Position numbers and translations under genes: made by a program. The notes beneath the pieces are model-generated. The model worked only from the letters and a program-made list of their open reading frames with translations. It made no database searches and was not told the DNA's origin. Shown here in pieces: positions 24,095-52,900 of a DNA stretch of 64,000 nucleotides. Where the stretch lies: the NCBI GenBank assembly GCA_012845835.1, contig JABAKD010000020.1:17617444-17681443 (forward strand), read 5' to 3'. Numbering within the stretch: the first letter of the stretch is position 1; every line of letters begins with the position of its first letter. This DNA is from Undaria pinnatifida. Lineage: Eukaryota > Sar > Phaeophyceae > Laminariales > Alariaceae.

Positions 24095-25310
24095 TCCCCC
24101 CCCCGCAAATTATACGTACCTTGGCGTAGAGATCTCAAAGGGCTGCTCTTGGGATGCACACATAGCGACAGTAATAGGAAAGGGTAAACCACAGTAGGCA
24201 AGATGGATGCGATCCTAACAGATCCGCACCTTGACACTAGGATTAAAATATGTATTATGATTAATGTGATTGTACCAAAGATATAGTATGCAAGAGAAGT
24301 ATGGGGAGGGAACGCGGAGTTTGTAAAAACTGGAAACAGTGCAGATGGCAGCAGCTGAAAAGTTACTAGGATGCTCAAGTACCACGAGTAATACAGTATT
24401 AAGAGCAGAACTAGGAATGTACCCACTTAACATAAATAGAGACGTGAGAAAGTTGAAATGGCAATGTAAAGTAAAGAATATGCCAGAAAAAAGGTTGTCA
24501 GCCATAATCATAGTTGATACCAGGTAGGGCTGTATGGGAGAAAACAACAAAAGGGCGAGATGGAATATAATGGGATAACGTAGCCGAGAAAATATCGAAG
24601 GGTTTAGGGGGGACCAAGAAGAGGTACTGTATATAGAGAAGTTTGGCGGGTACAAGACAGAAGTAACAGAAATAATAAAATAAAGTAAAAATCAAGCGCT
24701 AAGAAATAAGGTGAAAGAGGAGAAGCGCTTAGAGATATCAAGGTGAAAGAGGAGAAGCGCTCAAGAGATATACGGGGGGTTGAGGGAAGATATTGGAATG
24801 AAAGCATGTCTGCAGGGCCCAATGGACTACGCGAAAAAGCTAAAACTGCAAATTCGTGTAGGGGACCTGGACCTACCAGAAAGAAGAAAGAGGTATACTA
24901 GTAGTCGGGAGGAGGAGGACGTGGCTACATTATGTGCTCGTGTGGCACAACAATCGAGAGTAGGACTCACATAGTAGGAGAATGTGAAATATATAAGGAG
25001 GAACGGGATGCGTTAAGAGGAAGAGACGAGGAAATTAGACGTATGTGACATGGAAGAGGTTGGTAGACTAATAGAGAGTAGCGAGAAAACGATCGCTATT
25101 CTAGGAGATAGATAGTGGCCGCAGACGGCGAAACAGAACGGGGATAGGATAAGCAAACTGTTTATATTTAGTATATGGAAGAAACGTAATGAGTACCCAA
25201 ATGTTGGAGGTGTCTCTATTAGGACTAGGAACGGTGCTCCGTCTCGAAAGGGATGCGTGGTCAATGGTCAAATCACTAAGGCAAGCAACAAATGAGTACG
25301 CCCCCCCCCA
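24095..25310 (+). pseudogene. LINE ORF2 fragment, third LINE family
   Basis: Successive + strand pieces read VQMAAAEKLLGCSSTTSN then VLRAELGMYPL (24339-24527), RVGDLDLPERRKRYTSSREE (around 24860) and a zinc-cluster-like CSCGTTIESRTHIVGECEIY (about 24930-24995). This order is typical of the region after the RT palm in several LINE clades. The pieces lie in different frames with stops, so the element is degraded. Its 3' end (NAACAAATGAGTACGCCCCC) matches tails at 25795-25935 and 54720-54870. Confidence 0.65.
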
Positions 25311-25317
25311 CCCCCCT

Positions 25318-25440
25318 TAATATATACCTGGTATATATAATAGTTGGCCTCGGTTGGCACCGACGCTGTAAAACATAAACATTGTATGCATGTTGAGGTT
25401 GGCGTTAGTTGGCAACGACGCTGTAAAACATGCCAATCAC
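25318..25440 (+). repeat. Short tandem duplication (CAACGACGCTGTAAAACAT)
   Basis: TTGGCACCGACGCTGTAAAA at about 25352 and TTGGCAACGACGCTGTAAAA at about 25410 define a ~57-base direct duplication. Confidence 0.65.
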
Positions 25441-25729
25441 TGCATGAGCTAGACAACCAGCGTACCGTTTTTTTTTTGGGGGGGCGGTTACCAGGATCGT
25501 TAGCGAGTAGGTCATATTGTGCGGGGAAGAGAACCCTAACTGCGCACAAGGGAAATGATCGCATCACGTAGTGTGAATATGGCAAGGCACCTACAAGACA
25601 GTTACATAGTGATACCCATTGCTGTCCCTGGAGTGACCACACCAGAAAACGAAGTAACTCATTGGCGCTGCCATCCATAAGCAAGAAAGTAGGCACAAGG
25701 TGCCGAAGTCCGTCTTACATGCGGTTCTT

Positions 25730-25935
25730 GGAAGGATGCTGTTGACCCTTCATGCGACTCGCTGAACACCTCACGGCGCTTTGCGCTTGGTGCAAGCAAT
25801 GTTTGCCTGGTTGGTGAAAACCCGACGTGCTCCGTCCCGGCATAGTAGGGATGCGAGGGTCTATGGTCATACGACTACGACCATGCACAAACTGAGTACC
25901 CCCCTCCCCCCCCGCGCCCCCTTCCGCAAATAACA
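25730..25935 (+). repeat. LINE-3 3' end copy
   Basis: GCCTGGTTGGTGAAAACCCG, GACGTGCTCCGTCCCGGCAT and the tail CTGAGTACCCCCCTCCCCC match 54720-54870 and, more weakly, the end of the LINE fragment at 25200-25310. These look like 5'-truncated insertions. Confidence 0.5.
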
Positions 25936-25939
25936 CCCG

Positions 25940-27128
25940 CACTGCCGATTAGAACGTGACATTGCCAACAAGCACACAGCACAGTCCACAGCACAGGGCA
26001 ACTATTAATAGCTCTGCCCAAGTAGCTCTTGGCATTATTAATTGGCTAGTCGCACCAAATCATGGGCTTCTTTCTGCCCCCTTTACATGTTTTAGTTGCA
26101 TTCTCTCTTGCGCGAGCAAAGCGGGAGACGTCAGCCGCCCGCGGAGCGGAGCCCTTGTAGAAAATACCAGTATCATAATCACTTCAAGTATCAAAAGCCA
26201 TAGTCTAATCAAGAGACTATCAAACTCAGGGGCTTACAATACCAAATGCCGGTATCGTAATATACTTGAATACAATACCAGCCTCTCGTTTTCAAGAACT
26301 AAGTACCAATAATACCAGTACTGAGTGCTCGCGTCTAACCAGACTCCAATTCAAGAACCAAGCATCAACGCCCATACTACTCGTGTCATGCCAGACTGTC
26401 ATGCAAAAACCAAGCACCAACAGTAATAGTACCAATAAATAGCCTGCCTATGAGAAACGTCTACGTCTAGTTAACCAGCATTGAGAAACCATAATGAATG
26501 TACGACTCTCAGTTAGTGCGGTCGGTCTGCATATATGATATTTTTCTCAACACACGACTTTCTCCAGAGCCCGTCGGGACAACGTGGATGTTATTTCGTC
26601 ATCTACGAAAAGCCCATGTGCCAGCTCATTCATTGACCCAGCAATAAATGCTACATTATTATTAATAGTGCTCACCGAGTTAAGACCACGACATTCTATT
26701 GATGCCCATTATGGACTTGGCATTTGGATTGAATCTGAGGTTCAACTCTGGTTTGATATTTGGGCTTTGAGTGTAAGGTTAGATTTGAATGCATGATGAT
26801 CTTGGTTTGAATCACCGTGGTATGTTGAGCGATGCTGTGTTATCCCGTTCCCTGCGCAGGGAGCAGAGGGACTGTTGAGGATACTCATAGACTCGGTAAC
26901 GATATACACATGTAACCGTATCTGTGAGGGTTTCCACACATACAATATGGATGTTTCTATATGGATAATTCCTACTCTGTGATGCCTCGTCTGGCACTTG
27001 TTCTACGAGCTCCCACGGGGCGACGATTGTATATATTTCCCTTTCTCTGCTCGTACATCATGAGTGTCCTTCTGTGAGCCTACTCCCGCCCGGGCATCTA
27101 CCGGTGGATGCACTCGACACGCTAGCGT
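25940..27128. other. Unassigned interval
   Basis: It contains scattered ATACCAGTA words and short repeats around 26160-26420. No gene or terminal structure was recognised. Confidence 0.45.
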
Positions 27129-27389
27129 GTCGGACGCACCCACTGGTAGGTGCCCGGTGCCCGGGTTGGGATGGGTTCGTGTTTGGGTGCTCATGGTGGC
27201 AGCACTGGAGGGGTACATGTAGACACGAAGTTGAATATAGAACAACACAAGTATAATACCAAGGTGTGAAGTTGAATTAGTGGGGACCTCCCGAGGTTCA
27301 TATCATGTGCCTCGGGAGAAACATACCTTTTGTCTCCACGAACTCCCAGACGGTTTCATAACCATCTCGTGCGCCTCGTACCGTCGACA
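27129..27389 (+). repeat. R6 dispersed repeat, copy 2
   Basis: This is the partner of 22578-22830 in the same orientation. Similarity stops at CCGTCGACA on the right in both. Confidence 0.7.
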
Positions 27390-27559
27390 ATTGGAAAGGG
27401 AACCGAAGACGCGGCTATTCGAAACAAACGAAAATGAGTATATAGATTCACCCACACCTCGTAATGAGGCTAAGACGCCTCATTGCAAGAGATACGATCC
27501 CCGCGATGGAGCTCACGGCCGTGAGAGCTGGAGGTATGTACCTACGGTATACCAGTAGC

Positions 27560-27810
27560 AATCGGCCTACGAAACGTATCACCGGTGATGGGGGGGCGTT
27601 TTGTTTCTTGGCGGGGGGGGAGTTAATCGTGACTTGAAGACCTATGAATGAATTGGAGCTACTACTGCATGAATGGCTCGAAAGGTACAGGGATAATATC
27701 ACCTGTCGGGTATTATAGTGTTTATAACTAACTCTGGTGAGTTTTGGTTTTTGGTGGGGCGGCGGGAGAGGGAGGGGGTCGGGGGAGGGGGAGGGGGCGG
27801 AGGTGGATAG
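27560..27810 (-). repeat. G-rich R7-like segment
   Basis: The sequence CACCGGTGATGGGGGGG, the GGATAATATCACCTG region and GGTGGGGCGGCGGGAG with GGGGGAGGGGG runs resemble the polyG macrosatellite at 48.6-49.5 kb, but diverged. Confidence 0.45.
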
Positions 27811-28129
27811 GAGCAAAATATTCTACCCGCATCCTAAATACAGATGCCCAGCATTTAAAAAATAAACGATGAGACGGATGAGAGCAATGTATACGTGGTA
27901 TTGTTTTTACAACATTAATGTTAGTGGTTTTCGATTTCCGTATATACAATATGAGTACTGCGAATGATACTTATGGTGTTTCTGTACGTACCCTGGTGCG
28001 AACTAAATGGAGATCGTCTAAATGAATATACGATGGTGTCACCTGAGCTATCGACAACCATTGGAGGTCTTAGCCATTTGGGTGCACCTACCGTGCAATC
28101 AAACATACATGCCTGGTTATCTGTCTTTT

Positions 28130-28340
28130 TTCCATCCCATTCATTGTCCTCGCACTGCGCTCGCGCTCCCTCCCAGTAGTAACTCAGATCCGGGGTCACA
28201 TAGCGGCCGCTTCTCCCCCCTCCACACTACGGTACGTGCCTTCATTTTATCGCAAGAAGAACTCCGCATTTTCTTCCCTCGTCGACTCACGTCGAATAGG
28301 GCCTACCCACGCTGCTAGGCGCTCTCAACAGGTGGTTATG
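28130..28340 (-). mobile_element. SINE-B body fragment
   Basis: CTCCCTCCCAGTAGTAACTC, AGATCCGGGGTCACATAGCG and TTTTCTTCCCTCGTCGACTC are the reverse of the SINE-B body. The tRNA head is missing. Confidence 0.65.
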
Positions 28341-28627
28341 TGTAATCGAGCAAACATGTATGGCTATCTATGTGATAGACAGCTTAAAAGAAGATAACCG
28401 TTCGGAACGGTCATAGTTAGGTACACAGCGTATTACCATACAGAGATAGGGTAGTTGGACATAACCGTATGATACAGCATTCGACATAGCACTACCCAAC
28501 ATTACGACTACAGTATTTGATAGTGGTTTGTGTGGGTGCCGGAATGTCCGCAGAGATCATATTATAAGTCGGACAAACCACTGAGATATAAATATATATA
28601 TAGGATGATTATTTTTCTCAGGGATTC

Positions 28628-29215
28628 GGTCAGGAGTTTTTTGGTGTCTCGGCCTCAGTATGCGATTCGCGGAACTGGAATTCTCGTTCAAATAGCTTCG
28701 TTCGAGCGCCGGCTTCGGGGGGCGGCTCGAACGCCCCTCGCCCTGCCGTGTCCGTTCCGCACCTCGACGTGAACGCGGACAGATGCCGAGCGAGACAAGC
28801 GAGAAGTTGCAAAAACATCGCATGTCGAGGAGGAATTCCGGAGATTTTGGTTGCATCTCCACCTCTGCAGCGCCTGGATGATTTACAAGATTGGCATCAT
28901 TTCCAAACGGTAATTTGTTGCTATTGTAATGTTTTGAATTTTGCGGTGGCATACTCTCGAGCGTTTGTTTTGCTTGACGTCTGCGATTCTCGGAACTGGA
29001 ATTCTCGTCAAACCGTTTGTTTTGCTCGACGTCTGCGATTCGTCGAAAACCGTTTGTTTTGCTCGACGTCTGCGATTCTCGGAACTGGAATTATCGGTCA
29101 ATTAGCTTCGTTCGAGCGCCGTCTTCGGGGGGTGGCTCCAACGCCCCTCGCCCTGCCGTATCCGTTCCGCACCTTGACGTGAACGCGGATAGACGCTATG
29201 CGAGACAAGCGGGAA
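28628..29215 (+). repeat. R4 repeat, one full and one partial copy
   Basis: The full copy (28628-28975) begins GGTCAGGAGTTTTTTGG and contains GCGATTCGCGGAACTGGAAT and GTTCGAGCGCCGGCTTCG. The latter pairs with the following GGCGGCTCGAACGC to form a strong hairpin. The second copy (29070-29215) repeats the hairpin and CCCTCGCCCTGCCGTATCCG. CGTTTGTTTTGCTCGACGTC is repeated three times between them. A minus-strand full copy is at 63370-63668. Confidence 0.7.
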
Positions 29216-29419
29216 GTGCGTTTTTTTCTTGTATTTTGGGCGGTATACGCCCGAGCTATTCTTGGATCTTGGCATATGTAGAGCTTGAACGAATAAATCA
29301 TTTTGGCGTCATTTCCAAATTGGCATCTAAATTTCTTTCCGACGATGCTTTTTTCATGGCCGCCTCCAAGCGCTTACACCCAATCGTAGCTACTACCGCT
29401 GTGTGTCGCTTTCTTTCGG

Positions 29420-29890
29420 CTCAGTGGGTATGGTACTATATAACCAACAAAGGATGTGTCGTGAGTACGATTCTCACCCAGATCATACTGGGTATTCAGG
29501 AGCGTACGCGCTGGAGACGTTATGCATGATTATGATAGTTGTTAGTGTTCTCCTGAGTACTACTAACTGTAGTACGTGAAGAGGGGATAGATCCGGAGAT
29601 CGCTCTTACGAAGTCGGTGATAATTAATTAACGAACTGGAAAACATATTTGGTTGTTTTTTTGCATAACCCACTCACTACTGTGAGTGCTATTCTGAGTC
29701 AAGTGACAGTGGGTAGTGCTATGTGTCGTGAGTTCGATTATCACCGACTTCATATTTGTCTTTTTCAAGCGTGCGCGCTGACGACATTATGAATGGTTAT
29801 TTTGGTAGTTTAACATATATATGTAGTGGCACTACCAACTGAGCTACTGAGTCAAGTGATTAAGTATAGCTCAGTGGGCGGTGCTGTAGC
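29420..29890. repeat. tRNA-like palindrome family, diverged copies
   Basis: The words TATATAACCAACAAAGGATG, GTCGTGAGTACGATTCTCAC, CGAAGTCGGTGATAATTA and AGTGGGTAGTGCTATGTGTC match the element at 14486-14905. Inverted and partial copies are interleaved, again placing tRNA-like heads at both ends of a ~200-base core. Confidence 0.5.
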
Positions 29891-30535
29891 ATTTCTCGGT
29901 CAAATCACTTTGTTCGAAGGCCGCCGTCCAAGCGAGAAGCGCGCAAAAAAATGTACTTTGAACGGTACGCTCCAGTTATTTTTCGAATCTTGATGTTTGG
30001 AGAGGTTGATAAAATAAAACTTGGCCAGATATTCCAAATTGGCGTCATATTTTGTCCCAAAACAAATAAGAATATTACTGTAAAAAATTCCCATGGTGCT
30101 GCGGTAGGGATTATAGTAGTGCGTTTGTTTATTGAATTTCGGTAGGTAAACGTATATACATGGATATACGTAGACGTGGCAAGGACACGCATGGCTAAAT
30201 GAGGAGGAGAGGTAGTAGTGATTACGATAACTGCGCCAGGAAAAGCCACACAGCAGCATTGCGAGTGGCTGCGTCCCCGGGGCCTCGAGGGTTGCATTAT
30301 GCAAGTTCCTCCTGTTGTTAAGCTGTGCCACTCGAAGGTGGTGGTAAGTAGACAGTAGGATGGCGTGCTTTGTTGTTGCTGTGGTCCCTGACTCCGTTGC
30401 TGTGGTCGTTTGCCGGTCAAGTGCAAGCGGTCGTGTGTTGGTACGTAACTGACAAATAAGTTTGTATTGCTTCGTACTTGACGTGCTCCTTATTGCTGCT
30501 GATTGCTGATTGGTCATCTCTTCTAGTAGTGATTT
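29891..30535. other. Unassigned interval
   Basis: A 226-codon minus-strand frame covers much of it but has no recognisable domain, unusual composition and no homologous segment elsewhere in the window. I leave it uncalled. Confidence 0.4.
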
Positions 30536-30842
30536 TTTTTTTCGTGGCACGCTTCTACTTTCCAGCTTCTGGACATACAAGCCGTGGTCACAGGTGTCGT
30601 CCTCCCCTCCCCCCCCCCGGTTATTGCTTTCATATTTTTTGGCGCATAGGGTTCAGCACCCACTGATCGTCAATTTCCATCGAGTGTTGCTAACTCACGC
30701 TCTCGCGCTTTCCGCAAGTCAAATAGTGCACAAGACGAAAAATATATATGAGTACTCACTCGGGGGGATTCGAACTCACGAAGCTGACCTATACCAGGCT
30801 CGAACATGCAACCTGATACGCCACCGGGGCACTGAGTGAGAT
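30536..30842 (-). mobile_element. SINE-C copy, near full length
   Basis: On the minus strand it reads GCCCCGGTGGCGTATCAGGT (A-box part) and GTGAGTTCGAATCCCCCCGA (B box), then the 3' body with GGAAAGCGCGAGAGCGTGAG and CCAGAAGCTGGAAAGTAGAA. This gives the order of modules that the fragments at 9.3, 11.0, 15.0 and 47.7 kb retain in part. Confidence 0.7.
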
Positions 30843-31180
30843 GTAGCCGGTCGCCCCGGTGGTCTATAGTGGGGTTTCACTCGAATACTACTACTATTAA
30901 TACGAGCGCTTGTCCTTGAGTTAAATAACCACCGTTGTGAGCTTTGTTGGCTTTATTTATTTGCAAAAATAAATGGAAAAAAAAGGATCAACTAACGGCT
31001 AAAATCGCCTAGCAGCGTGGGTAGGTACAAATCGACGCGAATCGACGAGGGAAGAAAACGCTGAATTATTCTCGCGATAAAATTAGGGCAGGTGCCGTAG
31101 TGGGGAGGGGGGAGGGGAGCCCGCTATATGACCCCGGATCGAAGTTATACTACTGGGAGGGCGAGAGTAATGCGAGCATC
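30843..31180 (+). mobile_element. SINE-B copy
   Basis: It starts with GCCGGTCGCCCCGGTGGTC directly at the head of the opposing SINE-C, so the two families meet head to head. The body runs through ATCGACGAGGGAAGAAAACG and TGCCGTAGTGGGGAGGG. The B box is degraded. Confidence 0.65.
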
Positions 31181-31554
31181 ACAATAAATGGGATGGGAAA
31201 AAGAAAAGAAGTGAAGTGTATTACTGCTGCATGCTGCTGTAATAATACGATACCCAAGCAAGTTGCACCGATCGACTCGATCCGGATTGCCTGCTGTTGT
31301 ATTATGCAATTGGTCCATGTACAACTTCTCTAATCACACGCAGCGGACATGGTCAGTCACCTTACTGGCCCCGGATGCGTGATTGAGTAAAACTATCATA
31401 AGGAACACACTCGACAGGTTTCGTCGCCAGACTAAAGGGTCAGTTGGCGTGTGCTCGGATTTATGCGATCGAAATCTGATGAATGAAGCTCGGAATCGGA
31501 TTCACTTAAAAAACGGTAGCTATTAATGGTAGTGCATTGTTATGATTGTTAGTC
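31181..31554. other. Unassigned interval
   Basis: No gene or repeat sharing was recognised. Confidence 0.4.
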
Positions 31555-31695
31555 CATATCGAACTCTTGGCATTACCTTACATACTGTACGCGCAGACTA
31601 TGATTATGTGTGGTGACTTGTTTTACTCTGCCAAGTATTGAATCGAACAATTCGAAGTGCTGCCCTGCCCTACCCGAAGCATGGGTGCCGGCGAA
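31555..31695 (-). repeat. R8 repeat, inverted partner of 59895-60040
   Basis: GAACTCTTGGCATTACC and TGCCCTGCCCTACCCGAAGC, then ATGGGTGCCGGCGAAT, are the reverse of the R8 copy at 59.9 kb. The hairpin arm is incomplete here. Confidence 0.65.
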
Positions 31696-31796
31696 TTAAA
31701 AAAAATGAAAAACAAAGCTTGCCAAACAGTGTAGCTACTACCAGGTACTATTAATCTATGAGTATTAATACTGCGTGCCAACTAGGGTATCGTTGT

Positions 31797-32030
31797 CGTT
31801 CGATGCTTCTTCGGAAGTGTATAGGGGGAAGGACTTGGCCCTTGCGGCTGAAGGGGGCAGGGCCAGGAGAACAGGGAGGTGCATCTAGTATTCGTAGTTT
31901 TTGGGCCAAATGGAAACATCGTTTCACGCTTTCATCTGGATGTTGTGTTCTTTCATCATATTTCTGGTTTTTGACACTCACGCTACATTGTCAGATGGCA
32001 AATGAAAAAATAATAACAATAGTATGTCCT
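31797..32030 (+). mobile_element. Truncated copy of the 255-bp-repeat element with LINE-like tail
   Basis: It begins in the middle of a repeat unit (TCGTTCGATGCTTCTTCGG), runs through GGGCAGGGCCA and the same 3' unique region as 4400-4540, and ends CGCTACATTGTCAGATGGCA plus a short A-rich tail. The abrupt 5' start suggests 5'-truncated retrotransposition. Confidence 0.7.
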
Positions 32031-32069
32031 ATTAATACCATGTGTTAAACGTGTGCGTGTTCTTGGATA

Positions 32070-32330
32070 TTAAGCTGATGTTTCCACCCATCTACATCCA
32101 GCACAAGCAGTGTCAGTGTCGATGCCTCGTAGAGCGACAAGCTGTGAGGTCACAAACTATTAGACAGGGTGGTGTTATATATCATATGATAGAGCTCACT
32201 AACCCCAATCCTATTTGAAGCAATCTGTATGACTGTCTCGTAGTTTATGACCACAGAGCTCGTTTCTCTATGAGGCATCAGCACGGACACTGGTTGTGCT
32301 GGACGTACATGGGTGGAAATATCAAGTTAA
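32070..32330. mobile_element. Foldback/MITE-like element with 90-bp inverted arms
   Basis: Arm 1 (32070-32159) contains TTTCCACCCATCTACATCCA and GATGCCTCGTAGAG. Arm 2 (32241-32330) carries their complements, about 85% matching. Only ~80 bases separate the arms. A solo arm is at 21027-21121. No target duplication is evident. Confidence 0.65.
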
Positions 32331-32989
32331 TGTGAAGAGAACACACAGCAGTACACACAGCAGCAACACCTGTACAACAGCTGTACGGACAGGGAAATAC
32401 AGCCAGCTTTATTCAGCAGCAGAAGATTTAGATCTACCAAGGTACTACTGCTGACATTTCCCGCTGATATTTCAATAGCTTGCCATGCCTCGCTACACGT
32501 CCCCTGCTGGCGAGTCCGCGTAACTTATTACGTACGTAATATCTTCCTTGCTTCCTTTCTATTTATCTCGTTTGTTGTTCCAGTCCTTGAAATGATACTA
32601 CATGCTCTGCTGCTGTTATCGCGATGTGGTGGAATAGAAATGATACACGTGCTGTCATGTTGTCACGGTCTACGAGCATCCTAGCGTTACGAGCACGAGT
32701 TCGAGTAGCTATTTCGGTTTGTACAGTATTTGGTTTCCTTGGTACGGTGTAGTAGTTAGTTTTAGATGCGAGTCTTGAAACGTATGTGCCAGTATGGGCC
32801 TGATACGCATGTACGCTGACTTCGAATTTTACTTTTTTATTTCTTGGTGGGTGTACGACTTGCTTCAGCTACGATATGCGACGTAGCTTTCATTCATCCC
32901 CCCTCCCCCTCTCCAACGCCCCCTCCTTCCCCACACCCCGCACGATCGCCTAGACCCAGCACCGCGCGTATAGCAAGCCCCTACATATA
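32331..32989. other. Unassigned interval
   Basis: CAG-rich words occur at 32345-32400 and a C-rich run at 32900-32940. No gene was recognised. Confidence 0.45.
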
Positions 32990-33835
32990 TGATTAATACG
33001 CGCGATCGGAGGATCACACACAATATTGCGAAGACCAGTGTAGATTAAATCCTTTATCTCATAGCTGGAGTGTATTTTAATATTATATGTGACCTGAACC
33101 TTTTGAAAACCCTTCCCCCCCCCCCCCCCCCTTTTTTTTTTTTTCCTCGCTTTCTCTTGCTCAAACGCCTCACCTAATATCAAAATCCGCCAGAGTAATA
33201 AACACTTCCACGCCCTGGATATCGCCTCGTTATAGTTTTAGAGCCGTCCATGCCGCTGCTGCATTTCGCACCCACCCCCGCCCCCAACGCCGTCTCCTTC
33301 CCCACCACCCGCACCATCGCCTAGACCTAGCACCACGCGTATAGCAAACCCCTACATCTATGCGACCTAAAGCCCTCCCCCCCCCGCCCCCCGCCTCCCC
33401 CGCCACATCCCCCCCCCCCTCCCCCACAAGAAGGATTTATAGTTTCCACGCACAAATTGACCTCCCCTCCCCCCCCTCCCCCCCTCACGCCCCTCTTTTG
33501 ATCAAAATCAGGCCCCCACGTCCTTAAAAACTCCGCCCTTCCCTCACCGGTTATTCGACTTACAGCATTCACTTGATAAAGTGATGCATTCCCTTCCACA
33601 GGTGTCAGATTTTGTCCCCCTCCGAAACGGGTCTTATAGTTTCCGCTCACAGACTGCCTAGCATCACCCTGTTGACCCTGATAGCTACACTGTAGTTGCA
33701 AGGGGAGTCGCCGACCTATATCCTTAATGAGGACACACAACTCGTAAAACGCGCGATCAGAGTATCACACACAGCTTGCAAAGATGAGTTTCGACAAAAT
33801 ATAAGATCTCACAGCTGGAGTGTATTTTATTTTTT
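32990..33835. repeat. R1 copies and C-tract (inverted R7) block
   Basis: R1 3' words lie at 32995-33080 and a full R1 copy lies at 33430-33835. Between them, GCAAACGCCTCACC-type words, AAACACTTCCACGC and GATCGCCTAGACCCAGCACC are the reverse complement of the R7 macrosatellite at 48.8-49.4 kb, with long C tracts at 33113-33135 and 33375-33480. Confidence 0.65.
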
Positions 33836-33950
33836 ATAGTACACGCGTCTCACTTTTGGTTTGCTTTATTTTTTCCCTGAGGTACAGATTGACTGGAGCC
33901 TCTCCTGTGACCACCGATTTAATTTGTTTGCAATTTATTAATGTAAGAAC

Positions 33951-34104
<154 letters not shown>

Positions 34105-34215
34105 ATAAACAAACCCCTTTCTTTTAGGTCGCCGCGTTTGCCATACCACCGTCATACCAGGTAAACTGCTGTCATTGATTCTTGCTTTTCTTGCGGTACA
34201 GCTTGTTGCACCACA

Positions 34216-34217
<2 letters not shown>

Positions 34218-34289
<72 letters not shown>

Positions 34290-34370
34290 ATAGTAGTAGT
34301 ACTTCGAAGTATTATAGTGGTAGTAGTAACTAGTAGCAGTAGCAGTAGCAGTAGTAGTAGTAGTAGTAGT
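34218..34370 (+). repeat. (TAG)n microsatellite
   Basis: About 150 bases of TAG/GTA units, interrupted near 34300-34320 and followed by CAG-containing variants. It lies 115 bases from the (CAA)n tract. Confidence 0.95.
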
Positions 34371-35058
34371 CGCGTGTACATATATTTTTAAGTTCCGCGC
34401 TGGCAATACCGCCGCAGGCCGCTGATAACGAACCCATGCCATATGTAGCAAATGCTACTCTGTTCTTCTTGCTTCTGGCATTACAGCAGCTTGTTGCATT
34501 ACGGTCGCGTTTACGTCGGCCTCCATGCTTTCGTCATTGGCGCATATCGTTCTGCGACCACGCTGAATGGTGCAAGCAAAGCGTTATGATCAATAACACG
34601 CTCGTCCCAGCCGCCACTGTCCAGGGAAACCAAAAGGGTCGGGATTTAGATCGAAGCTGGGACTACCCCAGGCGATTTTATATACTATGCTACCCCGAAT
34701 AGTGTATATAACTCCAGCATCCTCGTCTTGATAAGAGTGCCCCCGACCACTCTACACACCAGATACTCGGTACATGGTTTGCCTTATATCGCCGTGGTGC
34801 TCAAGAAGGTTTGTTTACGTGGAATCAGAACAAACGAAAGACACTTTTTTCTATTACTAGAAATGTTGTGCACCGTGTCAAATGCGAGCATACATAAAAC
34901 CCTACTGTGTTCGGGCGAAGGAGGAACACAACCGTTTCCATGCTCGCACGCTCGACCCAATCGGAACAGCTGCTTTCAATTGTTCGCCGCGCAGATACAA
35001 GCTGGCTGGGGTCTGTTGGTTCGTCCGTCTGCCGCGTCGTTCCTGAAGGGGTGGTGAG
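34371..35058. other. 5' flank of the four-exon gene
   Basis: No upstream exon could be supported: frames here have no recognisable domain, and one ends just before the ATG at 35059. Promoter elements are not obvious, so the transcription start is unknown. Confidence 0.4.
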
Positions 35059-38000
35059 ATGGCCACAGAGGTACTGCTAGAGACCCTGGCGGGATGCGAA
35101 GATCTCCCGTATGTCGGTACGGCGTGCAAGGCCGTCAACGCAGTGGTTGGCATGGTGCAAAATTCCGAGAGCGTTCGAGCAGCGTGCACGGAAGAGTTCC
35201 CGGAAGAACTGCAAAGATTGCAGGTAATACTATATTTACATGGGATTTCGATCATTGACACAAAAGATCTGGACCATAATGTTATTGGTACAATGTGACG
35301 ACTGACCGATGACGGTCTTCAGAGGCTAACACAGAGTCGTGACGAGACCAGCTCGAGCCTGACTGATGATGGTTTAGACGATGGTGGGTCACTTGAAATG
35401 GGCTCTTGTTGGGCCAACAAAAACTTATAAAAACTGTCCAAACTTCAGATGCAGGTGTGAAGAGTGAACCTGATGTGCAAGCATTCCTGTTCTGTTTTCC
35501 TTCTTACGGCAACTAGTTACCTCGTACGGCAATATCCACTACATACGACACCCAGGTCAGTCTTACGCACGTGACCTAGTCAACACTTCGATCTTACGCA
35601 CGTGACCTCAGTCAACACGTTACTTGGTGGAATGTCGTGCACAATATGGGTCCTCTTCGATACCCAAAGCAAACAACGTAACCCATGGTTGGAATGTCGT
35701 GCAAAATATGGGTCCTCTTTGATACCCAAAGCAAACAACGTCTAACCCCCTAACCCATGGTTGGACAGCTTACCCACTCTGCACTCACTTATTTGACAAT
35801 GCAATGAACGTTTACCTTTGACGGGTGGGTCTCTTGTGGATCCTACTTTTCAACACTCCTCCTTACATGAAATTATCGTACCAAATGTGCTCAGCCTTAA
35901 TTCCCACTCCACTTGCCTGGTCTAAAGCATTATTTTCAGAAAAAGTATCTTGTCAGAGCGTATCATCCTTTTCCGCTCAGCTTTACTCTAGTTTCCTGGT
36001 CTGAAGCGTTAGTTGCAGAAAAATATCGTTTCAGAGTGTTGTTCTTTCTGCCCAGCTTTCGTATGCTATACTCAGGCCTTCCGAAGACCCTTTCACCGCG
36101 GTCCCTCCGTTGGCCGATAGGTTTTCTCCAATGATGTTGTAAATGTCTGACGTTACGCGGCACGGTGGACGTTATAATTCCAATAGTGTCTTCAGCGAGG
36201 TGAGCAATCGCCTCCGTCACTTCCGACGAAGCCTGCCTTATTTCTGCTCTAATATTATCCATCGCTTCTGACTGTTGTTCGTGTGTTTAAGTTCCGCAAC
36301 ACATGTTTCGTTCTCTCTCTAGTCTAGCCTTCGTACGACTAAGGTTGTGCCTGCATTCGTCTTCCTGCTCGTTGAGCTTCTTTACATATATTCTCTTCCA
36401 CGCCCCCCGTTCGCAGTCAACTCCTGTAGCCTGCACGTTGCTATCGATTTTTTTCGACCTGAGATGATCTGATCTAAACTACAGTAGGCTAGCAACTTTG
36501 GTCCATGCGTTGGTGACAAACCAAAAAAGCGCTGTGGCTCCACCAAGTCCTCATATCCCGCACTTTCTACCACGTTCCACACAAACGATCCAAAGGATTT
36601 ATCGGAGTAGTCTTCGACGTCTTGCTTGCTAGCCCAGTTGGTGATCGCCGCTGCCTTCTCAGTGTATTGCTCGTGTACATGCCCTGATCTCGAGAGTCGA
36701 TCGATGTACAAGTTTCTCATCATTGACTGAATGTCGTCGATGCCAAAGTTTGGGCTGTGAAAGCTCGTCACCTTTACGAACTCGTAGTCCTCAGTCAGGC
36801 CTTGCACTAAGATGTCTTCAAACCTCTCGTCCAAGATATTATCTTCCATTTCATGCAGTCACCCTCGAACCTCCAGTAGCTTGAAGGTGCAGTCATCGAG
36901 ATCTTGCCCTTGCTCCATCCGGAAGTTCACTAGCTTCTTGTAGCAGGCCTGCCGTGCTTCCTTGCTGTTGTTGTACTTAGTACAAAGCGTTCCACGCCTT
37001 CTGTCCGTGTCCCAGACCTTCCGCCGAAGTCCTGTTTTCATGTTGTTGACTGTAGCTGCGGGGCCGCTAGTGGCGAGGTAGAGGTATGGAGACGAGGGTC
37101 TCGCACGCTCGCTTCCAGCGTTGAACTTCCACTAGATTTGTTGGGGCGTCCGGGGAATCACTGTCAGTGATAATCGGTACCGGTTCAATCTTAACATCAA
37201 GCACGTCTTTGTTTGACATGGACAAAACTACGCAGGTCTTCGAGCTCCATTTGCGATAGTTCTTCGGTTTGGTCCCATCGAATCTGGGAATATTCCTCAT
37301 GGTTGATGTCACGACGTTTCCGGCCTCCTCCATGATTACTCTGAATACGTTGCTTGTGCTGACCTGTGCCGTCAGGTTTCTCTCGTTTAGCTCGATCCTA
37401 TCCGTGAAGCGCCTGAAGCGTGCCGACTTGTTCGCCGGGCTTCCTTTTTGTTTCGTTCAGTTCGATCTTACCCGCGGCTCGCCCGAAGCGTGCAGGGCTG
37501 TCCACCGGGCTTCCTTTGCTCGTTTAGCTCGCGCTTGTACGCAGACCATCTGAAGCGTGCTAGTCTCCCCGCCGGTCTTCCTTGTCTCGTTCAGCTCGAT
37601 CTTGTACGCAGATCGCCTGAAGAGTGCCGGTGTGTTCGCTGGGCTTCCTTTTCGCGTTCGGCTCGATCTTGTACGCAGATCGCCTGAAGAGTGCCAGTCT
37701 GTCCCGCCGGACTTCCTTTCTCGTTCAGCTCGATCTTGTACGTAAATGCTGTGAAGCGTGCCGGTCTGTCCACTGGGCTCAATTTTCTTCGTGCGCGTTG
37801 TTCCAGTGACGTTCGACTCGATTCACGTTTGACTCCAAGTTTATTTCGTTGTGTTCCAGGAAAATCACCAGTCTTGTGCTCCACCGCAGGGGATGTTCAT
37901 ACGCTGTGTGCTGCACGCTAACGGGGCTCAAAACCTGTTATGATGTGGTGGCTGACCGGTGACAGTCTTCAGAGGCCAACACAGAGTCGTGGCGAGACGA

Positions 38001-41000
38001 GCTCGAGCCTGACTGATGATGGTTTAGACGACGGTGGGACTTGAAAAGGCTCTTCGTGGGCCAACAAAAACTTTTGTCACGAAAACTGTCCAAATTTCAG
38101 ATGCAGGTGTGAAGAGTGAACCTGATGTGCAAGTACTCCTGTTCAGCTTTTGTTCCTTCTTACGGCAACTAATTACCGCGTACGGTAATATCCACTACAT
38201 ACGACACCCAGGTCAATCTTACGCACGTGACCTCAGTGAACATGTTCCTTTGTGGAATGTCGTGCAAAACATGTGTCTTATTCCATACTCGAAGCAAACA
38301 ACGGCTAACCCATCGTCCGACAGCTTACCCAGAAATCTGCATTACACTTATTTGACTGTGTAATGAGCATCTACCTTTGACGGGTGGATCTCTCGAGGAT
38401 TCTACTCTTTATCAATGATATATAATGAAGCTCCAATGCAGTTATATGATCTTCAAGTTCCACCCCCCCCCCCGCCGCCCCCGCCATTGCCTATACCTAG
38501 CACCACGCGTGCAGTAAGCTCATATTCATTTATGCGGCGTAAAAAAAGTTAGAAAGCCCCCCCCCCCCCCCCCTTCACCCGCCCCTCCCCACGAATGGAT
38601 TGGCCAATGGAAAATGGCAACATGTGCTACAAAAGAACGCAGTCGAACGACAATGTCTCAGCAAATTGACCTTCCAGCATAGTCTAATGTTAATGTTCCA
38701 CCTTTAATACTAAAATCACGCTGCACATGTACCCACGCACCACGCATCTAGACCCCGTCGACACGACGACCAACCAATCGCGATATTTTGTACGCAGGTG
38801 ATAGTTCATTGTTTCATTTTTTCAATTCGTGCTGAACCCCACATAAGAGAAGGAGATACGTTGTTTTCGCCAGCACATCTGCCGTACACCTAGCCAATGT
38901 CCCATGAATTCCATGACCCAATCAATGTCCCACGCACTCCACGAGCGCTCCCGCCCCGCAGTTTTAGCCTTTCCACCCAAAAACAAAAAGAGACGTCTGC
39001 AAACAATTCATAATTCGTAATTCGGCATCCGCGCCTGTTCATTGTTGTTTTGCTGCGGCAAGCCGAATGCGGAATTTTCGAAATTTCCTTTGTTCACGAG
39101 TAGGAGCGCACTGGGGACTGAGATGTGGACCGTTTCTGTTTGCTAGAAATGTCGCAACCTACATGAAAATATCATTAACAATTTCCGGACTCCGAAAAAC
39201 ACGCTGCTTTTGAAACGACTCCCAGGCCTGTCGGCCATTCTCATCGAAACGCTTTTTGTCCTAAATTTCCCGGTTTTCCTGTTTTACTTGCATGTTTTCC
39301 GTGTTTTTTTGCACTCATTTTTCCTCAACTAGGAATGCGAAGCGTCCCTGGGTTTTTCTCTCTGCTAATTTTCATGACCTACGATTTTTTCCCGGTGGTG
39401 TTTCCTGTTTTTGTCAAGAAAAAAGAGAGGAAAATCAAGCTAAAATATCTTCGATAGGAATTGCCCTTTATGAGAACGGCAGCATCTACTACCAGAAGCG
39501 TTATATGTAGGTAGAGGAAACGTCATTATCGTGTGCATGATGAGGTGACCAGCTGCGTCGTGTATAAAGCCTATTTGCGATGCTTGCTATTTTTGCACTG
39601 ATAAGCTGATATACAAACCAATCGCATAAGAACGTTGCACGTGGAGCCAGTGGCGAAGCAGAGACTGACAGCTTGTAAGCGCACGCATTATTCGAGCTGA
39701 TTATCGCGTTTAAGTCTGACTTGATGCGTGCCGACCTCTCAATCCAAAATGAACAACCCTTACCCCTGCCTCAGATAATTCTGAGCCTGTTGCCCGAGAG
39801 GATCGGCGTCGTGGATGGTAGTGAAAAAACGCTATGCGACGGTACCTTGGCCCGGCTGACCCGCCATGTCGAGGCTATGGAGGAGACCGTGGATACCTTT
39901 AACAGAGAGAAGACAAATTGCTGCTGGAGTTTGTTAACAGCAAAGTCTAACAAGTCGCGGATCGACAGTCTGAATACATCGCTCGCAAAGATCAAGCAGG
40001 TGAAGCCCGGCGATCGATGGCAACGGTTGTACCCGCAGGTTTGATGTTTCGGCACGCGGTACAGTCAGATGTGTTCCTACCCGCACACACTTGTTACTGA
40101 CCCTGGGTCGTGCTCTCGATTTCACTTGTTTTGATCGGAGCTATCTATAACCTACTGTAGTACCGATTTTTACCGCCACCACTTGCCGGGTGGGTTTATC
40201 GGAACACTGCGGTGACTTTTTGGTCTCCCTACAGTATTCCCAAACTCACACGCCCCCATATTCAACGGAAACTCGCTGTGTTTTTCGGCAGCAGAGTAGC
40301 AGAGAACACACATTTGACATAAAAATATTCGCGGTCATCACCGGTATGTACTGGGAAAAGCTGGTTCAGGGTTACAACCGGTAGGTACCGACCTCCGCAC
40401 CACTTGCATCCTGATTTAATATTGCAATGGTGCGCTGATCTTGGGCATGGCGAGGAGTGTCTGAGCTCACCTGCGACTTGCTGAAAAAAATCCTGCTTTT
40501 CTGCGTCATCTTAAGTGTGTGTTGCGCATCCGAACGTGCCAAACGAACAGGATCTGAGTCTTCTTCTCGGCATCTTCAATGGTGACAACCGAGACGCTGG
40601 CCGACGCCGTGGCGATGCCTACTCATTCAGTCAATTGCTGGCGCAAGCTAGGGAAGTAGATCGCGAAGCCGAGAAGTCGCGCCGCAAGGTGGAGCATATG
40701 AACAGACTGGAGGGACTATACGAGCAGAACGCGAGACCTTGTATGGATATGCTGCGATACCTCAAGAACCGCATGGGCAGCCGATACCCTGTGGCGGCGA
40801 TCATACCACCCGTTCTTGTGACAGACGAAGAGCGCAACGCCATGTTTGCCAGTATGAGGGTGAGCACTTTACGAAATAACTACTTACAAATATCGATTTC
40901 CTGAGGGGCCCTAATAGGCCTCCATTTTTTTCGCTTCCCACACTAATTTTGATACTTTTTTCTTTCCGGACGGCGGGGCGGGCTCGGATGCCTGAAATAG

Positions 41001-42311
41001 CGCTTCTCAGCGCTTCTCACCGTTTCCTTTTCTTATGAGTATAGACTATTATCAATGCCTTTTTTAATTAGTATCGTTTTTTTTTTTACGAACGACGGTT
41101 TGTTCATCGCGCACTGTCAAACGCCCAGGTCGCCAGCACCAGGTGGTGACGTGGAACACCACGCGTGATCTATCGCCATCTATAGTCATGGTACTTACGC
41201 GGATGTTTTGGCGGCTTTCCCACCCTGTAGCTGCTGATTGCTGCACGAATTTCGTAGTCATTGCGGTCTACACTGCGTACGCATCCATTGACGCTTTATT
41301 CCACCATCACGATTAAAGCTGTGCCGACCACTGCTAACTCGAAGGCGGCACCTACCTGGTGACGGAAATATTGCTTTTACCAATACACGTTTTTGATTAC
41401 TAATGGTTACTGGCTCCTCTCAAAGAGGTGCGAGTTCGTTCACCCCAAATACCCCGTACAGTACTGTATTTTGTGCAGACGCTTATCGACTCACATGTTT
41501 CCAGTCACGCGGCGGAAGGGGGCGCTTTGATGTTTTTGAACCGCATTGATCAGCAAAAGGCCGAGCATCGTTTACAAGTTTTGTGTTGAGTTTATTAGTG
41601 TGTGCTTTCCGTGTCGTACTTGACTCTAAGCCTTGCTCTTCTTTCGCTGCAATCCTCGACAAGTGGGAGAAATCGGCTAGTGGTCTTATTGAGTTTTTCA
41701 TGTTTTGGTGTTTTCGAGTTGTTGAAGTTTTCCTTGCGCTGGAGCGTGCTTTTTTTCTGCGCCATCGAGAAAACGTAAGTAGCTAAAACGGTGTCGCACT
41801 CTTCACCTCTTGCGCCTGCCGCTGTAATGTCGATCTTTCACGACGGTATATCTCATCGTGCGCTACATGTCTGTCAAGTATATCAGAAACTAAACCAATG
41901 CCTCTACGTATGCGCTGCGATGTGTACTGTACGTACATACAGACTCTGTGTACGTTCTGGAGGGACATCCAGGCGCTCTACAAAGATAAGACGAACATAT
42001 TTGAAGGGAGCAAAAGCTGGGCGGGCCGCGGCAAGGAGTATCGTATGCTTTGTGAGCCGATCGATATTTTGAACTGGTACTACGGCGATAAAAACCTGCA
42101 GGATGGACACTACATTGATGGTATCTCGGAGAACGATGAGCTCGTTGACAACCATAAGCGTCCGGGGCGGTATAAGTTGCTACAGGAGATGGAAATCGAA
42201 GTGTTAGAAAGAACACCAGAATCGTCCCTGGGAACTGCAAGAGAGTTGAAGGAGCTTTTGAACGACCAGTCATGGAAAACGCTCGCAAATGCTGACGGGC
42301 CCTATGCGTAG
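35059..42311 (+). CDS. Four-helix-bundle (MLKL/HeLo-like) plus EP-domain-like protein, 4 exons
   Basis: Model: exons 35059-35223, 39775-40038, 40551-40859 and 41943-42311, giving 368 residues and a TAG stop. Every intron is GT-AG and phase 0. Residues 1-130 (LAGCEDLPYVGTACKAVNAV, then ELQRLQ joined to IILSLLPERIG, then LARLTRHVEAMEETVDTF) look like the N-terminal four-helix bundle of MLKL/HeLo-type cell-death proteins. Residues 144-246 are helical and charged. Residues 247-325 contain FWRDI, EYRMLCEPIDILNWYY and KRPGRYKLL, in the order and spacing of the EP domain of plant EDS1, PAD4 and SAG101. No lipase-like or kinase domain is seen. The joined function (immune or death signalling) is inference. 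The model rests on splice sites and frame, and the first exon could be a separate gene. Confidence 0.55.
35280..38414 (-). mobile_element. Old, broken Ty1/copia-like LTR retrotransposon in intron 1
   Basis: Two direct repeats start TGTTAT and end in CA: 35280-35855 (576 bp, with an internal duplication) and 37936-38414 (479 bp). By eye they differ by 15-20%, so the insertion is old. The coding strand is minus: 5' LTR on the right, then a leader with about six 67-bp tandem units (37390-37790), a gag-like region, and a purine-rich AAGGAGGAG next to the left LTR. No protease, integrase or RT domain remains. It is a fossil with a large internal loss and a few breaks in gag. A clear target duplication was not found. 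Confidence 0.75.
36380..37333 (-). pseudogene. Copia-type gag remnant (UBN2-like)
   Basis: On the minus strand the region shows RFDGTKPKNYRKWSSK near its start, then CYKKLVNFRMEQGQDLDD and ILVQGLTEDYEFVKVTSF. This matches the gag polyprotein of Ty1/copia elements (start-site W, a central helix, L-x-x-L-P/T-x-x-Y). It belongs to the LTR element and is broken in about two or three places. Nucleocapsid-type CCHC knuckles were not seen. Confidence 0.7.
38415..39774. other. Rest of intron 1
   Basis: It holds C tracts with R7-like words at 38460-38580 (CCTATACCTAGCACCACGCG) and otherwise unique sequence. The acceptor at 39774 is preceded by CTTACCCCTGCCTCAG. Confidence 0.5.
40875..41030 (+). repeat. 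R5 dispersed repeat in intron 3
   Basis: It carries AATATCGATTTCCTGAGGGG and CGGGCTCGGATGCCTGAAAT and starts only ~15 bases after the exon 3 donor. Confidence 0.65.
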
Positions 42312-49984: not shown

Positions 49985-52900
49985 ATGGTGACTCCCTTTA
50001 TGTTGCGGCGAATCTCCCCACGTATGCCTGTAGCAATGCATCGCATGCTGTCCTCAAAAGCCGACCTGAGTGATACCAGCTACGAGCAGTTCAAAACCCT
50101 TGCTGTCACCAAGCCGGCAAGCGCTGTGTTCCAGGTAAGCCGAGGCATTGGCTCGGAGAGCAACAACATAGCAATCGTCAATCGTTAGTACACGTGTGTG
50201 CAGCTCTTCATATGGCGGGGGTGGTAAGCACTTGGAGATGTAGCGGTCATCATTGATATGTTTTGCGGGGAGCTCAATTTTTCGCGTCCGTTTCAGCGTT
50301 TCTTCAAGAATGATCGCATTCTAATTCCAAGTGTTTTGTGCCACAAAACGTGCGTGCAGCAGCAGTGGCACTGGTCAGCAGTAGAGCGTACAGCAGCTAC
50401 TACTCCTGCTGTACATGTGTACTCTAATAATACTGCTTGGAGTGGCCGAAACTGCAACCTGTACAGGCGTGTGTAATGCTCTTGCGAGAGCGCGAGCTCC
50501 TTCAACATCCGTTGGCGTTGCTTTGAGTCTTTGGGACCCATGTTGACACATACAGACATTCCATATCACAAGAGATCAAAGCACGACGAGTTCGACCTTG
50601 TCAAGCGTCTATTAATAGGCAGGTCGTGCTGCGCCAGTGATCGTACAGCTGCTTACATTGCGATTCGGATGCATTCCCTGCACCAGCAGCCCGGGCTCCA
50701 TCGTGTGTCCGGCACTACAGAAAGCAGCAATATTGTTAATGGCTACGTACGATATGCGTGTTTATGGCTATCGCCCAATGTTTGCGATGATTTTCCTCTC
50801 CGAAGTCCCGAAACGACTTATATACTACACGAAAGGCACTAACAACGTCATCAATCAGGGTGATAGGGTATAGCTTGTGGCTTGGGGCGTTGCAACGCTA
50901 AGCTCTACGACTGATCTTGTAGAGCTTTCTTGCTTTATTTTGCGGGAGTAGATGGAAGCTTCCATAGCGTATGGAAACGAACGTACGTTTTTACCCCCAA
51001 AAAACGTCCATCCATGTGGAAGTAAAGTTACTCCCATGAAGGAAATACAATTTACTCACGTGGAAGAACTGGAAGCTTTCATCGAAGTGGAAGCTTCCGA
51101 TTCTTCCGAGGAGCTGTATATCTGTATATAAAATTCCACGCGTACCGGTATGACTGCTGTATACTACTGCTGTACCAGCACTTGCCATCAGACCTGACCA
51201 GTACGGAGGCGTTGTTTCCAGGCCGGTTTCTTACTTGGAATCTCGATCCTCTTACAACATGGAAGGTGGAGATCAACCGTCCTGACAAGGCGAATTCAAT
51301 GAGTGCCGCCTTCTTCGCTGAGCTGAGGCAATGCTTCGACAGCCTGGCCGTCGATCCAGCCTGTCGGGCAGTCGTCATCTGCGGGTCAGGTACAAGTTGG
51401 GTGTGAATAGCGTAACTTCCATGGAGAAACGCGACGAAAGCCATCCATCATGCCATGCTTCGGCAAAATGCACGTGATTCTGTTTCGGTCCGAGCAGAAA
51501 AGAGAAACGGAATATTACAATCGTGCACGAAACTTATTATATTACAATGTTCAGATGCCGGCGGGCACCAGAATACACAAGGAAATGATAGCAAGGGACG
51601 GGTTCGTTTGTAGCCTTGAAAAAGTAGCAGTGTTAGTTGCTTCAGTTTATTGTCGGTTGCGGTGCGACACACCCTACGCGCGCGCTGAATGACGTGTGCG
51701 CGGTCTTCATGAGTGTGAGAATGGCGACTTGTTTGTGCTCCATGAGGTTCGTCGCTCCCCTGCTCGGCGGGTGCATAAGCCGTGACGAGGTGATAGCTGA
51801 GGCAACAAGATGGCAATTACATCTCCGCGCGTTTTCAGTGTGGCAATGTTTTGCTCCAGCGTAGACAGGCATGGGATGCGACGGGGACAGGCGTGGTGCG
51901 TTTGTTGCTGTTACCCCGGCCGGCTAGGTTTGTGCGCTGCCCGTGGGATAAGATTTAAGGACGGTGCCGTCCTTCGACGTCAACATGTGCACTGCGTCGC
52001 TAGGTGTCATTGTCTTTTTTCTCGGCCTTGGGTGCTACGCTGCCCTTGGTTTCACGGCCTCGACAAGGAGAAGCCACACGCCTTTACTCCACACGTTATT
52101 TATCCTCAGGAAAGTTGTTTTGTTCGGGTCTCGACCTGGAGGAGCACGCACCGGCGTTTCGAGAAATGACGTCATCGTCCGGAGACGGAAGCAGCGACCC
52201 TGCGCGGAAGTCGTTCGGGATTGCACGATTCGTTTCCGGGATGCAGGAAAGCTTGGCAGCCCTTGACAGGTACGGGAGTGCACGAGCGCGCGCGTTTTGC
52301 AGGGCACGCTGCTTGTAACAGCGTATTTTCCGCGGCGCAAACCATAAAAATCGCCGGGGTGGGTAGACTTTGGCGGTTTAAGGGGCATGCCTCACGCCGT
52401 TCTTCGCATGCCTTAGCTCGGTTTCAAGGGTGTTACGTGGTGCTGCAATACTTGGCTGTTTTGACCACTGGCAAGCATCATGTAGCAGGCGCGACAATTT
52501 CTTTCCCGTGAACTCCACATCTATCCTCCCGGCCTCTCGCCGTGCAGCTTTCTGTTTGCCGACGTACATTTTCACCGTTGCACGACGTATATCTTCACTT
52601 CGTCTCCGACACGTGCCTGCCTGTGCCAGATGCCCAAAACCCGTGATATCTGCGGTGCACTCAGCGTGTGTAGGAGGTGGAGTCGACCTTGTGTGCGCGA
52701 CAGACATCCGTCTGGCCTCATCGGACGCGTGGTTTTCCATCAAAGAGGCGAGTTGTGTATCGGAGGTGAACGCTTGAAATCGATATCTGAGCACCGATGA
52801 CGCAAGGCCCAGTCCCTTACTTTGCCCGTGCTGTTGCCACCATCATGTTGCGCGTACCTGGTGTATGTGTGTAAGAGGTATGCTGACCATGCATCGGCCT

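What the first reader, a model, noticed from the sequence alone, without database searches (positions are those of the whole stretch)
35059..42311. A single protein that seems to join a cell-death four-helix bundle to an EDS1/PAD4-type EP domain
Seen: four exons in phase 0 with good GT-AG sites give one 368-residue frame. The C-terminal exon has FW..I, then YR.L.EPIDI..YY, then RP.RYK at the spacing found in plant EP domains; the N-terminal half has the MLKL/HeLo-like pattern. Known: in plants, EDS1-family EP domains bind helper NLRs (ADR1, NRG1) whose N-terminal RPW8-type CC is also an MLKL-like four-helix bundle, and EP domains follow a lipase-like domain. Inference: this gene may be a one-chain version of that sensor-executor pair with no lipase domain.
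Basis: partly seen in the sequence, partly recalled or inferred. Interest (0 to 1): 0.88.

Follow-up and report, generated by a model that had tools for sequence, protein, structure and literature searches.

The report
Algal EDS1-type EP protein lacking lipase
A probable brown seaweed carries a gene with the signalling (EP) half of the plant immunity protein EDS1, without its lipase half and apparently fused to a different front end, which may give a new starting point for asking how this plant immune switch evolved.

Summary
Four phase-0 GT-AG exons read as one 368-residue frame. The C-terminal exon is EDS1/PAD4-type EP: Pfam EDS1_EP 23.7 bits, cut-off 23.1. A 62%-identical relative from another source scores 35.2 bits, E 1.3e-8; best PDB hits are EDS1 and PAD4. 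No lipase domain was found in the model or in 10 upstream frames scanned. The arginine corresponding to EDS1 R493 / PAD4 R420 is kept. The gene appears single-copy in its 511-Mb genome, which also holds a TIR-NB-ARC-TPR locus, a possible upstream enzyme.

The "cell-death four-helix bundle" is not established: MLKL_N reaches only E 0.02-0.13, far below cut-off and level with an unrelated viral family; structure predictions of EP pieces failed and the N-terminal part was not folded. Exon 2-3 is the weakest junction; a better in-frame donor would give 355 residues.

EDS1-like genes in brown algae were already reported in 2025 (PMC12089773), but the passages I read do not describe this architecture. 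Verdict: real EP protein, probably outside seed plants; one-chain sensor-executor possible but unproven.

The parts
35059..35223 (+). Exon 1 (residues 1-55), start ATG; donor CAG|GTAATA (98th percentile of window GTs)
   Evidence: listed as P0005 in the protein collection, marked as the window's own
35286..38414 (.). Repeat-flanked insertion in intron 1: direct repeats about 2.65 kb apart (35286-35855 and 37936-38414, main pieces 81-95% alike), probably an LTR element
   Evidence: two minus-strand frames inside have no Pfam match
39775..40038 (+). Exon 2 (residues 56-143); alternative, better-scoring in-frame donor ends it at 39999
   Evidence: listed as P0004, marked as the window's own
40551..40859 (+). 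Exon 3 (residues 144-246), probably linker plus first EP helices (inferred)
   Evidence: listed as P0002, marked as the window's own; best Pfam family of its own E 5.1
41943..42311 (+). Exon 4 (residues 247-368 and stop), EP core
   Evidence: Pfam EDS1_EP
41946..42155 (+). Stretch of exon 4 matched by Pfam EDS1_EP (exon residues 2-71, profile 39-108 of 211)
42168..42170 (+). Codon of R322 in RPGRY, aligned to PAD4 R420 (counterpart of EDS1 R493)

Best explanation
The gene encodes a lipase-less EP-domain protein of a probable brown alga. The EP domain (exons 3-4) is homologous to that of seed-plant EDS1 and PAD4 (shown for about 70 residues of its core). Most likely it works, like the plant EP domains, as a helical receptor/adaptor surface whose conserved positive pocket (R322 here) binds a small nucleotide-like signal made by TIR proteins, of which this genome has at least one on an NB-ARC-TPR locus (the TIR locus is shown; the link to EP is inferred). 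The 130-143-residue N-terminal part (exons 1-2) replaces the lipase-like domain as the dimerising or output module; a membrane-acting four-helix bundle is one candidate for it (inferred, weakly supported).
For: EDS1_EP over cut-off for the model, for exons 3+4 (24.7 bits), for exon 4 alone (23.8) and strongly for the relative P0003 (35.2 bits, E 1.3e-8); PDB hits to EDS1 and PAD4, weakly to SAG101 with P0003 (E 0.023); EP motifs conserved at 62% identity between the window and P0003; R493/R420 counterpart conserved; P0003 reads HQ|TL at the exon 4 boundary, consistent with the same phase-0 acceptor (its DNA not seen); no lipase in the model or in 10 upstream frames; a TIR-NB-ARC-TPR locus in the same genome. 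In plants, TIR products bind the pocket between EP domains (passages of PMC12856790).
Against: The profile match covers only positions 34-107 of 211, and the model alone barely exceeds the cut-off. With the window's own sequence, an unrelated ETS factor (E 0.15 and 0.051) scores above Arabidopsis EDS1 chains (0.21 and 0.13); with P0003 or the two-sequence profile no unrelated chain ranks above the EDS1 chains or the better PAD4 chains. Plant EP domains signal as heterodimers with lipase-like domains; only one EP gene and no lipase in it were found, so a dimer would need another partner or homodimerisation. No ligand, partner or expression data. Structure predictions were uninformative (pLDDT 37-38). 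The only functionally known residue mapped is R322; the Lys just before PAD4's Trp is Ser here, while the Lys before that is kept.
Confidence: 0.5

Rival explanations
1. Two genes, or a different splice form: exons 3-4 make a stand-alone EP protein (or take another first exon), while exons 1-2 belong to another short product that stops right after exon 2 (YPQV-stop).
For: Exon 2 donor is mediocre and exon 3 acceptor poor; reading through exon 2 meets a stop at the second codon; the first ATG in the exon 3 frame (MNRLEG) would still leave the EP region; no spliced product among the protein hits.
Against: All four exons share phase 0, strand and coding-like composition; a strong alternative donor at 39999 also keeps frame.
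Confidence: 0.3
2. True EP homologue but not an immune receptor: a helical scaffold in stress or hormone signalling (for example the salicylic-acid response proposed for Sargassum), with no nucleotide ligand and no cell-death output.
For: The Sargassum paper links EDS1-named genes to desiccation and salicylic acid (PMC12089773 passages); no executioner domain is established here.
Against: The functional arginine is conserved, and a TIR-NB-ARC-TPR locus is present in the genome.
Confidence: 0.2
3. One-chain sensor-executor: N-terminal MLKL/HeLo/RPW8-like four-helix bundle fused to EP; ligand-bound EP releases or clusters the bundle, which opens membranes.
For: MLKL_N is one of only two families that exons 1-2 touch (E 0.13 in the full model, 0.028 for residues 1-143, 0.021 for exon 2); the size of 130-143 aa fits a four-helix bundle; the LP.VG..CKA motif near the N-terminus resembles MLKL_NTD-type sequences (recalled).
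Against: 12.2-14.8 bits against cut-off 27, and Birna_RdRp_C has higher bit scores; only PDB hit is a ribosomal protein at E 0.7; no amphipathic signal above shuffles (222 of 500 reach it at 100 degrees); no paralogue found to build a profile.
Confidence: 0.2
4. Chance similarity or decaying pseudogene.
For: Score only just over cut-off; an LTR-like element sits in intron 1.
Against: P0003 at 62% identity keeps the EP motifs and scores E 1.3e-8; the four exons are open in frame; reversed control has no hit.
Confidence: 0.03

Closest known systems
Seed-plant EDS1 / PAD4 / SAG101 (lipase-like + EP domain)
   Same: EP core: FW, W......Y..L.EP[LI]DI.N, G.Y, RPxRY with the R493/R420 arginine
   Different: No lipase-like domain found; 11-residue insertion before RPGRY; different N-terminal part; single gene found; host is not a seed plant (inferred)
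'EDS1' genes reported in Sargassum and kelps (PMC12089773; passages read)
   Same: Brown-algal genes called EDS1 by domain content; one copy reported in Undaria pinnatifida and three in Saccharina japonica; one copy found in this genome
   Different: The words lipase and EP domain do not occur in its main text, the domain tables are in supplements I could not open, and most Sargassum copies (13-19 per genome) overlap TEs; whether they share this architecture is unknown
Helper NLRs ADR1/NRG1 (RPW8-type CC), MLKL, fungal HeLo/HELL
   Same: Suggested four-helix N-terminal executor fold (weak MLKL_N match)
   Different: No NB-ARC, LRR or kinase domain in the model (E <= 1); membership not supported
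Brown-algal NB-ARC-TPR receptors (mentioned in PMC10197012, passage)
   Same: Same genome has a TIR-NB-ARC-TPR locus
   Different: A separate locus on another contig (C31 versus C27)

Membership tests
EDS1 family (EP domain) | Match to Pfam EDS1_EP above its cut-off | tested here: met
   23.7 vs 23.1 bits; relative P0003 35.2 bits; also precomputed for P0001 and P0003
EDS1 family (EP domain) | Conserved EP-cavity arginine (EDS1 R493, PAD4 R420) | tested here: met
   R322 aligned to PAD4 R420 by MAFFT; HMMER's local alignment to PAD4 does not bridge the insertion and places PAD4's RPKRY elsewhere
EDS1 family (EP domain) | N-terminal lipase-like domain | tested here: not met
   No lipase in the 368-aa model nor in 10 of 22 listed upstream frames
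EDS1 family (EP domain) | EP fold over full length (about 211 positions) | tested here: inconclusive
   Only profile 34-107 matched; structure predictions pLDDT 37-38
EDS1 family (EP domain) | Binding of TIR-derived nucleotides by a heterodimer | not testable with these tools
   Needs protein and ligand
MLKL / HeLo / RPW8 four-helix bundle | Significant profile match | tested here: not met
   MLKL_N E 0.021-0.13, 12.2-14.8 bits against cut-off 27; no other such family listed
MLKL / HeLo / RPW8 four-helix bundle | Four-helix fold with membrane-active N-terminal helix | not tested
   The spliced protein was not sent to structure prediction (tool rule on letter-for-letter sequences); amphipathicity test negative

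The most novel reading that the evidence does not exclude
A single-chain immune switch in a brown alga: an EDS1-type EP domain that senses a TIR-made nucleotide and is covalently joined to its own MLKL/HeLo-like executioner bundle, collapsing the plant EDS1-PAD4-ADR1 relay into one 368-residue protein without lipase or NLR.
Probability: 0.18. Interest if true: 0.92.

Novelty: new variant of a known kind. Interest (0 to 1): 0.7.

Why it matters
The EP domain is described as uniquely defining the plant EDS1 family, with EP proteins present only in seed plants (PMC9806590 and PMC10834447 passages). A lipase-less EP protein in another eukaryotic lineage would show that the EP module is older or more mobile than the EDS1 family and can exist without its lipase partner domain. 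It would make it testable whether TIR-to-EP signalling exists outside plants, in a genome that also has a TIR-NB-ARC-TPR locus.

Tried and rejected
Structure of exon 4 alone (pLDDT 37.3) and of P0003 with two aligned rows (pLDDT 38.3): useless, so no fold search was run. Amphipathicity of residues 1-143: at 100 degrees 222 of 500 shuffles reach the observed value, at 120 degrees 25, at 160 degrees 280, at 60 degrees 494. Full-length protein search: 3939 candidates, none at E <= 1. Scan of bacterial/archaeal genome contigs with an EP motif: 37 stretches, 1 locus, which on reading is a chance match (an acidic low-complexity part of a CobT-like protein, identity recalled; the motif itself lies in a dehydrogenase-like frame). 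Viral contigs: 2 stretches, none confirmed; 14 stretches, none confirmed. Family PF18117 against the own genome at E <= 0.001: 0 matches from 2 candidates, although the gene is there, and no control genome rang, so that is no evidence of absence. NCBIfam: none at E <= 1. Rejected: pseudogene or chance (P0003 conservation).
Full report
What is there. Four exons on the + strand, 35059-35223, 39775-40038, 40551-40859 and 41943-42311, join in phase 0 into a 368-residue frame. GC is lowest at codon position 2 in all four, and base skew separates exons (A and G rich) from introns (T rich). The exons are also listed as separate single-exon frames in a protein collection (P0001, P0002, P0004, P0005; 6, 4, 3 and 1 member sequences). 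Those four carry the mark of proteins the window itself encodes, so they are not independent, and all four run into intron sequence, so they are genomic and say nothing on splicing. A search with the full 368 residues found nothing at E <= 1 among 3939 candidates.

Splicing. A generic donor matrix (recalled values) places the exon 1 and 3 donors at the 98th and 99th percentile of all GTs in the window. The exon 2 donor as given is at the 89th (score 0.0). A better donor, CAG|GTGAAG after 39999, also keeps phase 0 and scores 3.72; it would remove 13 residues (355-aa protein). The exon 3 acceptor has a weak pyrimidine tract (36th percentile). The exon 2-3 junction, which joins the two halves, is therefore the least secure. 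Intron 1 is long (4551 bases) because it holds direct repeats 2.65 kb apart (35286-35855 / 37936-38414, main pieces 81-95% alike), probably an LTR element. The two minus-strand frames tested inside it have no Pfam match.

The EP domain. Pfam EDS1_EP matches residues 243-316 (profile 34-107 of 211) with 23.7 bits against a cut-off of 23.1, E 4.3e-5. Exons 3+4 give 24.7, exon 4 alone 23.8, and its reverse nothing. With the window's own sequence the PDB search gives EDS1 8zf0 at 4.8e-4 and PAD4 at 0.005, but an unrelated ETS factor (0.15) then ranks above Arabidopsis EDS1 (0.21). The decisive evidence is P0003, a 62%-identical relative from another source (label lgn, species unnamed): EDS1_EP 35.2 bits, E 1.3e-8, and PDB hits to EDS1 (1.9e-6), PAD4 (4e-4) and, weakly, SAG101 (0.023), with no unrelated chain in the list. 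A two-sequence profile gives 7.7e-7 for EDS1, with one unrelated chain at 0.19. P0003 also reads HQ|TL at the exon 4 boundary, consistent with the same phase-0 acceptor (its DNA was not seen).

Functional residue. PMC6377607 (passages) reports that a positive charge at EDS1 R493, lining the EP cavity, is essential for TIR-NLR immunity, and that PAD4 R420 lies in a very similar sequence and structural environment. By the chain numbering, PAD4 R420 is the second Arg of RPKRY (my count). MAFFT aligns it with R322 in RPGRY, across an 11-residue insertion shared with P0003. HMMER's local alignments do not bridge that insertion and pair PAD4's RPKRY with other residues, so this correspondence rests on the multiple alignment. 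The Lys just before PAD4's Trp is Ser here; the Lys before that is kept.

No lipase. The model has none at E <= 1. Of 22 upstream + strand frames of at least 70 aa starting at 24000-35000 (low-complexity frames dropped first), I scanned 10 with Pfam: no family at E 0.1.

The N-terminal half. MLKL_N (cut-off 27) reaches E 0.13 in the full model (12.2 bits), 0.028 with residues 1-143 (14.4) and 0.021 with exon 2 (14.8), but Birna_RdRp_C has higher bit scores each time (13.3, 14.8, 16). One ribosomal protein at E 0.7 is the only PDB hit. Helical moment does not stand out (222 of 500 shuffles reach it at 100 degrees; 25 of 500 at 120 degrees). I found no paralogue (2 matches from 3 candidates, both this gene's own exons). 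The four-helix idea remains a lead from size, a weak profile match and a recalled motif.

Genome context. The window lies in a 511,146,479-base, 68-contig genome. Only this gene's exons match the protein (4 matches from 4 candidates; the exon 1 row runs on into the intron and so contains one TGA), and only its exon 4 matches P0003 (1 from 1), so EP is single-copy at that sensitivity. Pfam TIR found one place, C31:7911137 (E 0.035, 21.9 bits, cut-off 21.3); its frame has TIR_2 at 7e-14. Of five further frames that I chose downstream on the same strand, one has NB-ARC (8.8e-8), one a weak winged-helix match (0.022), one TPR over the cut-off (4.9e-9) and two sub-threshold TPR: a TIR-NB-ARC-TPR locus (exon joining not tested). 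TIR_2 over the genome could not be counted. The species is not identified by any search. Size and gene types suggest a kelp (inference); the Undaria pinnatifida assembly is 511.28 Mb in 114 scaffolds (PMC7058681 passages), close but not the same.

Literature. EP proteins are stated to occur only in gymnosperms and angiosperms (PMC10834447, passages), and the EP domain to define the EDS1 family uniquely (PMC9806590, passages). However, PMC12089773 (passages) reports EDS1 genes, called by InterPro domain content, in Sargassum (13-19 copies, mostly TE-linked), Saccharina japonica (3) and Undaria pinnatifida (1), and none in Ectocarpales. The gene here may be one of those. Its main text contains neither 'lipase' nor 'EP domain', and its supplements could not be opened. 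My paper searches listed no paper whose title or abstract start describes a lipase-less EP protein or an EP fused to a four-helix bundle. They cover only the held open-access library, several lists were capped (20 of 47, 20 of 44, 20 of 258, 15 of 856), and I read only passages of a few papers.

Mechanism. In plants TIR products bind a pocket formed by two EP domains and recruit helper NLRs (PMC12856790 passages; PMC10442000 passage). With the EP core, the key arginine and a TIR locus in the same genome, a TIR-to-EP signal is the most economical reading (inferred).

Verdict. My estimates: EP homology 0.95; same transcript as exons 1-2 0.65; N-terminus an MLKL/HeLo-type bundle 0.3; full one-chain sensor-executor 0.18. 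New variant of a known kind; interest 0.7.

Noticed in passing
G000:C31:7907000-7926999 (L006, L007): TIR (TIR_2 E 7e-14), NB-ARC (8.8e-8), weak winged-helix and TPR frames in order on one strand: a TIR-NB-ARC-TPR receptor locus in the same genome.
   Followed up: partly
window 35286-38414: LTR-like direct repeats about 2.65 kb apart inside intron 1, with minus-strand frames without Pfam match; looks like a short Copia-type element (recalled).
   Followed up: partly
window 3-1616 and 4662-6038: Two long, closely similar frames a few kilobases apart without Pfam match at E 0.01, resembling a retrotransposon tail (recalled).
   Followed up: partly
window 3021-4424: 468-residue frame built of internal repeats between the two similar frames; only sub-threshold Pfam hits.
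   Followed up: partly
window 51026-51403 and 52382-52774: Probable exons of an enoyl-CoA hydratase/isomerase gene on the + strand (ECH_1 E 3.7e-6, just under its cut-off, and 4.9e-8, over it).
   Followed up: no
window 34000-34388: Dense trinucleotide repeats (CAA and AGT) shortly upstream of exon 1.
   Followed up: no
   Followed up: partly
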